Source: Pseudanabaena mucicola str. Chao 1806
GTDB taxonomy: Bacteria > Cyanobacteriota > Cyanobacteriia > Pseudanabaenales > Pseudanabaenaceae
Reading direction: 5' to 3'
NCBI RefSeq assembly: GCF_030323025.1
Contig: NZ_CP097329.1
Span: 1,209,001-1,273,000, forward strand
Length of the DNA stretch: 64,000 nt
In this document: positions 44,496 through 46,141 of the stretch, piece after piece
Layout of the letters: the number at the start of each line of letters is the position of its first letter
Position numbering within the stretch: the stretch's first letter is position 1
Translations under genes and position numbers: made by a program
Notes under the pieces: model-generated
Told to the model about the DNA's origin: nothing
Databases searched by the model: none
What the model saw: only the letters and a program-made list of their open reading frames with translations

Positions 44496-45359
44496 ATGTC
44501 ATCCATCAATCTCAGCAAGATTCTTCTAAAAGGAGAAGTATTGTCCCTATTGAGAGGATTAATTACAACACTTGCTTTCCCAATCTCAATTCAAGATCAA
44601 AAAGGGGAAGTCCTAGTTGCAGATCTTGGCTTTGAGTTAGAGAAAGCAACAAAATTTGAAGTTAATCATGATCTTAACTCAAACAATGTCAGTAAAATCC
44701 CAGTTTTATTAGATGAAGAAGTACTAGGTTGGGTGATTGGGGCTGAAAAGACTAAACAGGTCGCTGATTTCTTAAACTATATAGTTAAGCGCGAGTTTGA
44801 AAGGAAAACTCTAGCAGCAGATACTCTAGATAACTACCGAGAGATGAGTCTGCTCTATACGATCGCGAGTAAAATGGCAAACTGCCTTGATGTTAAGGAA
44901 ATTGGGTCTCTTGTAATAGAAGAAGCGAGTCGGCTGATCAAATGTACGAGTGCATCGGTAATGCTCCATAATCAACATGATAATTCGTTTGAGATTATTG
45001 CTGCTAAAGGTACTGCTGAACGAATAGGAAGTTTAAAATTAGCTGCTAATCAGGGAATTGCAGGATATGTTTTTAGTACTGGTAACCCTGAATTAGTCAA
45101 TGATGCTACTAAAGACCCACGCTATATTGTGAATGAGATTGAATCCTATGCGTTAATCTGTGCACCAATTTTTACTAAAGATCGCATTTTAGGTGTCGTC
45201 AATATCAGTAACTCTGAGCCGATTAGTTATACATCTAAAGATCTTAAATTATTTACAGCGCTAGTTACTCAAGCTTCTGGAGCTATTGAGAATGCATTAC
45301 TACATGCAAGCAAACTACAAGAAGAAAGAGTCAAAAACAATTTAGAAAGATACTTATAG
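44496..45359 (+). CDS. GAF-domain half of a split adenylate cyclase
   Basis: A 287-residue protein, the N-terminal part of a GAF-adenylate cyclase gene interrupted by a 101-bp element. An N-terminal sensor-like region (1-110) is followed by a GAF domain (about 125-275: 'YTIASKMANCLDVKEIGSLV', 'AANQGIAGYVFSTGNPELVN', 'YALICAPIFTKDRILGVVNI'). It ends 'VKNNLERYL' followed by TAG, where the stop codon belongs to the inserted element. In intact relatives the sequence continues 'SPQVAQAVI' straight into the cyclase domain, which here resumes after the insertion. Confidence 0.9.
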   Translation: MSSINLSKILLKGEVLSLLRGLITTLAFPISIQDQKGEVLVADLGFELEKATKFEVNHDLNSNNVSKIPVLLDEEVLGWVIGAEKTKQVADFLNYIVKREFERKTLAADTLDNYREMSLLYTIASKMANCLDVKEIGSLVIEEASRLIKCTSASVMLHNQHDNSFEIIAAKGTAERIGSLKLAANQGIAGYVFSTGNPELVNDATKDPRYIVNEIESYALICAPIFTKDRILGVVNISNSEPISYTSKDLKLFTALVTQASGAIENALLHASKLQEERVKNNLERYL

Positions 45360-45457
45360 CGGTTTTCAAATGAGTGTGTACTCATTTGAAAACAAAAAAT
45401 AAGTCCCATTAAGAGTTTTGAGTTTTCATTTTGCCTACGGCAAAATGAAAACCGCTA
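45357..45457. mobile_element. 101-bp MITE inserted in the cyclase gene with TA duplication
   Basis: The ends are TAGCGGTTTTC and GAAAACCGCTA (perfect 11-bp inverted repeats), flanked by TA at 45355-45356 and at 45458-45459. Removing the element and one TA restores the codons TAC TTA TCA CCT CAG (YLSPQ), the normal cyclase junction. Internally there are two hairpins (ACTCATTTGA type at 45363-45392, and 'CATTTTGCC', loop TAC, 'GGCAAAATG'). A TA target suggests mobilisation by an IS630/Tc1-mariner-type transposase. Confidence 0.93.
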
Positions 45458-46062
45458 TATCACCTCAGGTTGCTCAAGCCGTGATCAATGATGCAGGGCA
45501 GGTAACTCTCTCTACTAATAAAAGAAGAATTGCTATGTTATTTTCCGATATTCGTAATTTCACTACAAAATGTGAGGAATTGGAACCAGAGCAATTAGTT
45601 GCATATTTGAATGATTATTTCACTCAAATGGTGGATGTGATTTTTACGAATCAGGGGACAGTCAATAAGTTTGTAGGTGATATGATCGTTGCAATGTTTG
45701 GTGCGCCTTCAGTGATCTCGGATCGGGAATATTGGGCGATCACAGCTGCAATTAACATGCAAAAGCGTATCAAAGAGTTGCCAATTGATTGGATTCGGGA
45801 AAACTTTATCACAGGAATTGGGATTAGCTCTGGAGATGTGATTGTGGGTAATATTGGTTCACCTCAGCATATGGACTATACAGCGATCGGTGATGAAATG
45901 AATATTGCTTCACGTTTGCAAGGATTAGCCCAAGGCGGACAAATTTTAGTAACACGTGGTGTTTATGATGCAACAAAGGCTAGTTTTCAATTTCGCGAGT
46001 TTGGAACTTTACCCATCAAAGGTAAAAAGAATCTAGTAGAAATTTTTGAAGTTATTTACTAA
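45445..46062 (+). CDS. Class III adenylate cyclase catalytic domain (downstream half of split gene)
   Basis: A 205-residue frame beginning at an ATG that lies inside the inserted element ('MKTAISPQVAQAVINDAG'). The cyclase core is complete: metal Asp35 in 'AMLFSDIRNFTT', Lys75 and metal Asp79 in 'VNKFVGDMIVAMFG', 'DYTAIGDEMNIASRLQG' with adenine-selecting Asp144 and transition-state Asn153 and Arg157. Lys and Asp at the selectivity positions indicate ATP rather than GTP. There is no clear ribosome site before the ATG, so expression is uncertain. If made, it would be a GAF-less cyclase. Confidence 0.85.
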   Translation: MKTAISPQVAQAVINDAGQVTLSTNKRRIAMLFSDIRNFTTKCEELEPEQLVAYLNDYFTQMVDVIFTNQGTVNKFVGDMIVAMFGAPSVISDREYWAITAAINMQKRIKELPIDWIRENFITGIGISSGDVIVGNIGSPQHMDYTAIGDEMNIASRLQGLAQGGQILVTRGVYDATKASFQFREFGTLPIKGKKNLVEIFEVIY

Positions 46063-46078
46063 GTAGCTATTCATAAAT

Positions 46079-46141
46079 AACCCAAAACCAGAGGCTTGGG
46101 TTGCTTGCTTAGCAAGCAACCCAAGCCTCTGGTTTTGGGTT
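46079..46141 (+). terminator. Perfect 30-bp palindrome, TTA loop, after cyclase
   Basis: Arms 46079-46108 and 46112-46141 without mismatch, 17 nt after the cyclase stop codon. The longest perfect stem in the window. Confidence 0.8.

What the first reader, a model, noticed from the sequence alone, without database searches (positions are those of the whole stretch)
44496..46062. A 101-bp TA-flanked MITE splits an adenylate cyclase gene and supplies both a stop and an in-frame ATG
Seen: perfect 11-bp inverted ends at 45357 and 45457 and a TA duplication on both sides. Excision restores the codons for YLSPQ. The upstream GAF half now ends at the element's own TAG (45357-45359). The downstream half has an in-frame ATG inside the element (45445), and all cyclase catalytic residues are kept. 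Inference: one sensor-regulated enzyme may have become a GAF-only protein plus a free cyclase domain, either inactivated or as a binary system.
Basis: partly seen in the sequence, partly recalled or inferred. Interest (0 to 1): 0.78.

Follow-up and report, generated by a model that had tools for sequence, protein, structure and literature searches.

The report
Mini-transposon splits a cyclase gene
A common 101-base "parasite" DNA element of a Pseudanabaena-type cyanobacterium has jumped into one of its cyclic-nucleotide cyclase genes and cut the sensor half from the enzyme half, which most likely just switches that gene off.

Summary
Window 45357-45457 is a 101-bp element with 11-bp perfect inverted ends and TA on both sides. 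It interrupts a GAF-cyclase gene after codon 287, ends the first half at its own TAG, and carries an ATG (45445) in frame with the second half. The element shares its ends with an IS630-family insertion sequence that looks complete in another species. It cuts the conserved linker between sensor and enzyme, at the place of the cyclase transducer element. Most likely consequence: loss of one regulated class III cyclase in a genome that keeps nine others. A working free cyclase is not excluded, but the ATG is buried in a hairpin, no promoter-like match lies in the element, and the few substitutions show no clear selection either way. MITE-made pseudogenes are already reported in cyanobacteria, so this is a new case of a known kind.

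The parts
44496..45359 (+). Upstream half: N-terminal region, GAF domain (44886-45290) and following helix; ends at the element's TAG
45355..45356 (.). TA target duplication, left
45357..45457 (+). 101-bp IS630-type MITE with two internal hairpins
45357..45367 (+). terminal inverted repeat, left; its first three bases are the stop TAG of the GAF half
45362..45393 (+). internal hairpin 1 (14-nt arms)
45400..45402 (+). TAA in the cyclase frame; the 5-mer ATAAG here was seen in 1 of 50 copies, ATCAG in 41 of 50 and in the sister strain (TCA)
45418..46062 (+). Downstream ORF from TTG in the element (214 aa) with the class III cyclase domain (45520-46038)
45422..45452 (+). internal hairpin 2 (14-nt arms), contains the ATG
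45445..45447 (+). in-frame ATG inside the element (MKTAISPQ...)
45447..45457 (-). terminal inverted repeat, right
45458..45459 (.). TA target duplication, right

Best explanation
A short non-autonomous relative of an IS630-family transposon inserted at a TA inside the linker of a GAF-regulated class III cyclase gene (shown by uninterrupted genes in relatives and by ends shared with the IS; that an IS630 transposase moved it is inferred). Translation of the sensor half stops at the first codon of the element (read from the sequence). The enzyme half stays open but is cut off from its start codon, its sensor and part of its transducer linker, so that the gene is most probably a young pseudogene in this species. 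This is tolerated because the gene seems dispensable in the genus and nine other cyclase genes remain (inferred).
For: Family: at least 52 full copies, all with TA on both sides; matches at E 0.001 or better in 17 of 17 other same-genus genomes searched (weakest best E 4.6e-5) and in 0 of 11 genomes of other families. Parent type: in G030 an IS630-like element, 1022 bp with its flanking TAs, whose ends share 20 bp (identical) and 24 bp (one mismatch) with the MITE, with seven end pairs of that spacing; the own-genome relative L130 is called IS630 transposase (NF033545, 120 bits, cut-off 100) and shares 79 bp of one side with the MITE. Uninterrupted gene: of 26 genus genomes 21 hold it at E 1e-60; 19 have one frame of 488-516 codons, G000 and same-species G031 are split; 5 have no match at that level, among genomes at least 90% complete and at most 5% contaminated 3 of 23. 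Of 76 loci in named contigs, 72 align through the junction in one piece. Conserved linker: R287, Y288 and Q292 (G036 numbering) invariant in 25 orthologs; the model puts the cut between helix 273-286 and helix 291-300, but pLDDT is under 50 there. PMC5995499 (passages) calls such a linker, with motif FGRY and a short helix, the cyclase transducer element; here the residues are LERY, of which RY fit. ATG buried: fold -40.8 kcal/mol, z -9. Ten cyclase-domain genes in the genome, this one included, plus one marginal hit.
Against: Both halves are free of stops and frameshifts in both strains that share the insertion, and the catalytic residues (roles recalled) are intact. TTG 45418, another possible start, lies in the unpaired part of the predicted fold. 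A free-standing cyclase domain beginning near the same point exists in a Microcoleus contig (L086). Ribosome-binding sites were not tested with a tool, and there are no transcript, peptide or activity data.
Confidence: 0.77

Rival explanations
1. The element turned one sensor-regulated enzyme into two working proteins: a GAF-only protein and a free cyclase started inside the element (ATG 45445 or TTG 45418).
For: In-frame ATG and TTG inside the element, the TTG unpaired in the predicted fold; complete catalytic domain and residues; both halves open in two strains; solved chains of about 200 residues match the domain, e.g. 3r5g and 2w01 (names and lengths only); a free domain in L086.
Against: The ATG is inside a 14-bp stem; no promoter-like match in the element; no sign of purifying selection on the downstream half, 2 N: 2 S, though the count is tiny; the ATG belongs to the whole MITE family (47 of 52 copies).
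Confidence: 0.12
2. In the sister strain (G031) a +1 ribosomal frameshift at the TAG makes some full-length fusion with an insert coded by the element.
For: In G031 the cyclase frame is open through the element (open frame 238 codons against 219), because it has TCA where the window has TAA.
Against: The window strain has TAA in that frame, so this cannot work here; an open frame through the element is common in the family (only 3 of 52 copies have stops in all six frames); no slippery site was tested.
Confidence: 0.03
3. Assembly artefact or chimeric join.
For: Repeats can mislead assembly.
Against: Same insertion at the same TA in another assembly, L036/G031; exact TA duplication; single 4.53-Mb contig.
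Confidence: 0.01

Closest known systems
IS630/Tc1-mariner family and its short derivatives (e.g. ISY100 of Synechocystis, PMC2170065, passages read)
   Same: TA target duplicated on insertion; ends shared with an IS630-family element of the genus
   Different: 101 bp, codes for no transposase; only its outer 20-24 bp match the G030 element
MITEs that make pseudogenes in Anabaena sp. 90 (PMC3542288, passages read): 15 of 147 complete or partial MITEs lie in disrupted ORFs
   Same: MITE splits a chromosomal gene of a cyanobacterium
   Different: Those MITEs were called type II, with no IS of the same ends in that genome; here an IS630 relative is at hand. The two families were not compared by sequence
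Correia elements of Neisseria (review PMC10969869, passages read)
   Same: Short MITE in high copy near and in genes; TA duplication is recalled, not read
   Different: The review gives 204 bp and tells of promoters and RNase III cleavage; none of this was shown here
Cyanobacterial GAF-cyclases such as Anabaena CyaB2 (PMC4411481, passages read)
   Same: GAF sensor N-terminal to a cyclase domain
   Different: One GAF match here instead of a tandem pair; ligand unknown; split by the MITE

Membership tests
MITE of the IS630/Tc1-mariner type | Short, many copies, no transposase | tested here: met
   101 bp, at least 52 full copies
MITE of the IS630/Tc1-mariner type | TA target duplication | tested here: met
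   52 of 52 copies with TA on both sides; for this copy, uninterrupted gene in relatives
MITE of the IS630/Tc1-mariner type | Inverted ends shared with an autonomous IS630 element | tested here: met
   L260:475-1496, two transposase frames between ends sharing 20-24 bp; family call NF033545 made on the own-genome relative L130; that the G030 copy is active was not tested
MITE of the IS630/Tc1-mariner type | Mobilised by that transposase | not testable with these tools
   needs a transposition assay; own-genome relative L130 has a stop in its first transposase frame
Class III nucleotide cyclase (adenylate type) | Catalytic domain with two metal Asp, Lys/Thr pair, Asn/Arg (roles recalled) | tested here: met
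   PF00211; D319, D363, K359, T430, N437, R441 invariant in 25 orthologs; the same residues in the window half
Class III nucleotide cyclase (adenylate type) | Makes cAMP | not testable with these tools
   no assay
Functional split (binary) sensor-cyclase | Both halves translated and selected | tested here: inconclusive
   4 N: 3 S against background 43: 51, Fisher p 0.70; no expression data

The most novel reading that the evidence does not exclude
A mini-transposon has cut a signalling enzyme at its transducer hinge and supplied stop and start codons, so that in one step a sensor-regulated cyclase became a stand-alone GAF protein and an unregulated, working cyclase that is kept in the species.
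Probability: 0.08. Interest if true: 0.65.

Novelty: new member of a known kind. Interest (0 to 1): 0.3.

Why it matters
It is a clean case, with occupied and empty sites, of a MITE cutting a modular sensor-enzyme at its hinge, and it documents a high-copy IS630-type MITE family in Pseudanabaena for which two full-text searches of the held library found no paper. If the free domain works it would show how a transposon can remake signalling wiring; if not, it is ordinary gene loss.

Tried and rejected
Looked for the autonomous partner first in the 1436-bp pair of ends at G000 2663678-2665113 (L112): its 422-aa frame looks like an IS256-type transposase (my reading, not run against a library) with MITE sequence at its ends, so I did not take it as the partner. 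The 53 DDE_Tnp_1 hits of the own genome were not examined for ends once the IS630 relative was found. Outward frames from the element's start codons: 12 of 52 copies have one over 30 codons; the window copy gives the cyclase, L005 (134 codons) and L009 (42) run into fragments resembling that IS256-type transposase, the rest were not identified. The structure of the intact ortholog was poor in the cyclase part (mean pLDDT 70), so no fold search was made and the second structure job was not used. Paper searches for a MITE in a cyanobacterial adenylate cyclase gene gave none; a wider listing on Pseudanabaena insertion sequences (23 papers, 8 listed) was not read.

The cluster of five private substitutions next to the element was considered as import from another lineage and not supported: the sister strain is closer to the ortholog in 12 of 12 alignments shown for both strains.

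Full report
Observation. The sequence is as described. The 101-bp element at 45357-45457 has 11-bp perfect inverted ends and TA on both sides. Removing it with one TA gives a 487-aa frame. The first half stops at the element's TAG; ATG 45445 and TTG 45418 inside the element are in frame with the second half. GAF and Guanylate_cyc domains fall on the two sides.

What the element is. The own genome (one contig, 4.53 Mb) gave 40 full-length matches at 94-100% identity, with 40 of 139 first-look candidates scored. Adding paired ends from the end-pattern search (128 sites, the first 100 listed; reversed-pattern control 29) gives 52 full copies, a lower bound. 52 of 52 have TA on both sides; 50 of 52 are exactly 101 bp. 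Four 41-42-bp single-hairpin versions were also seen. Matches at E 0.001 occur in 17 of 17 other genomes of the genus that were searched and in 0 of 11 genomes of other families. The genus is named from the titles of the nearest contigs: L036, 99% identical, is a Pseudanabaena MAG.

The parent type is an IS630-family element. Own-genome locus L130 carries a 205-aa frame called IS630 transposase (NF033545); 79 bp at one end is 98.7% identical to the MITE, and its other end matches the outer 20 bp at 95%. Its first transposase frame has a stop. In G030 an element of 1022 bp (TAs included) with two overlapping transposase frames has ends sharing 20 and 24 bp with the MITE; seven end pairs of that spacing are listed there. 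ISY100, an IS630-family element of Synechocystis, is reported to insert almost only at TA and to duplicate it (PMC2170065, passages). That such a transposase moves the MITE is inferred.

Empty site. Of 26 genus genomes (the window's own included), 21 hold the gene at E 1e-60 or better: 19 have one open frame of 488-516 codons, two are split, the window genome (219) and G031 of the same species (238); 5 have no match at that level, two of these being less complete or more contaminated.

Where it cuts. R287, Y288 and Q292 (G036 numbering; the cut is after 289) are invariant in 25 orthologs. The predicted structure of the G036 ortholog puts the cut between helix 273-286 and helix 291-300, with pLDDT under 50 at 285-290. 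PMC5995499 (passages) describes a coiled-coil linker helix, a conserved FGRY motif and a short helix as the cyclase transducer element. Here the residues are LERY, so RY fit; that this is the same element is inferred. If so, the sensor cannot drive the enzyme even if both parts are made.

Is it special among the copies? Of 52 copies, only the window copy lies in a frame that, with flanks joined, runs at least 60 codons on both sides. 48 of 52 overlap no ORF of 100 aa or more in a set of longest non-overlapping ORFs; the other four are the window copy, L005 (next to a transposase-like fragment), L237 (upstream of an ABC-type gene, label mine) and L226, where the element lies about 20 codons before the end of a frame. 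Mid-gene insertions thus look like rare survivors. Older insertions in decayed genes would be missed by this test.

Function after the split. Against: the ATG lies in a 14-bp stem of a fold of -40.8 kcal/mol (z -9); no promoter-like match lies in the element. For: TTG 45418 is unpaired in that fold; no stop or frameshift has arisen in either half in either strain, and the catalytic residues are kept. Neutral: the two strains differ at 7 sites in the two halves, 4 nonsynonymous and 3 synonymous, against 43 and 51 in 32.3 kb of neighbouring ORFs (background dN/dS 0.25); the difference is not significant (Fisher p 0.70) and the test is weak. Ribosome-binding sites were not tested. Polarised with G036, G002 agreeing, 5 of the 6 assignable changes are on the window's branch, all within codons 279-314 around the element; the local cluster reaches p 0.0003 in a shuffle chosen after the fact, and clusters of similar size exist elsewhere in the same 43 kb.

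Strain difference. The window copy has TAA at 45400-45402 in the cyclase frame, where the sister strain has TCA and 41 of 50 copies read ATCAG; the loop of hairpin 2 is TAC here and GTA in the sister strain. In the sister strain the cyclase frame is therefore open through the whole element; a +1 frameshift could join the two frames there, not here. I rate this very unlikely to matter.

Verdict. A real MITE insertion, shared by two genomes of one species; the most likely effect is loss of one of ten cyclase genes. MITE-made pseudogenes are in print for Anabaena sp. 90 (15 of 147 MITEs; PMC3542288, passages), so the kind is known. Two searches of the held library for Pseudanabaena with MITE terms found no paper.

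Noticed in passing
46079-46141: 63-bp near-perfect palindrome starting 17 bases after the cyclase stop, scored as terminator-like on both strands; one full copy in the genome and two weaker partial matches.
   Followed up: partly
45330-45540: Five private substitutions of the window strain cluster beside the element, which itself differs from the sister strain by a stop-making change and an inverted hairpin loop; error-prone repair at a palindrome is one idea.
   Followed up: partly
45436-45438 and the same place in the family copies: Hairpin 2 has its 3-base loop in two orientations, GTA in 26 and TAC in 21 of 50 copies, as if the hairpin inverts.
   Followed up: no
L112:299-1738: A frame of IS256-transposase look (my reading) lies between MITE end sequences; MITEs also sit at similar fragments in L005 and L009.
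   Followed up: no
L115, L116, L117, L118: 41-42-bp single-hairpin versions of the element with the same ends and flanking TA: smallest mobile forms or deletion products.
   Followed up: no
L086:3004-3609: A Microcoleus contig has the cyclase domain alone, 201 aa, without a GAF half, next to unrelated small frames.
   Followed up: partly
L226:1501-1601: Another copy interrupts a frame about 20 codons before its end (Gly/Asp-rich tail), a second likely coding insertion in the genome.
   Followed up: partly
L071:723-3606: Two tandem GAF-cyclase frames of the same type in Oscillatoriales cyanobacterium USR001.
   Followed up: no
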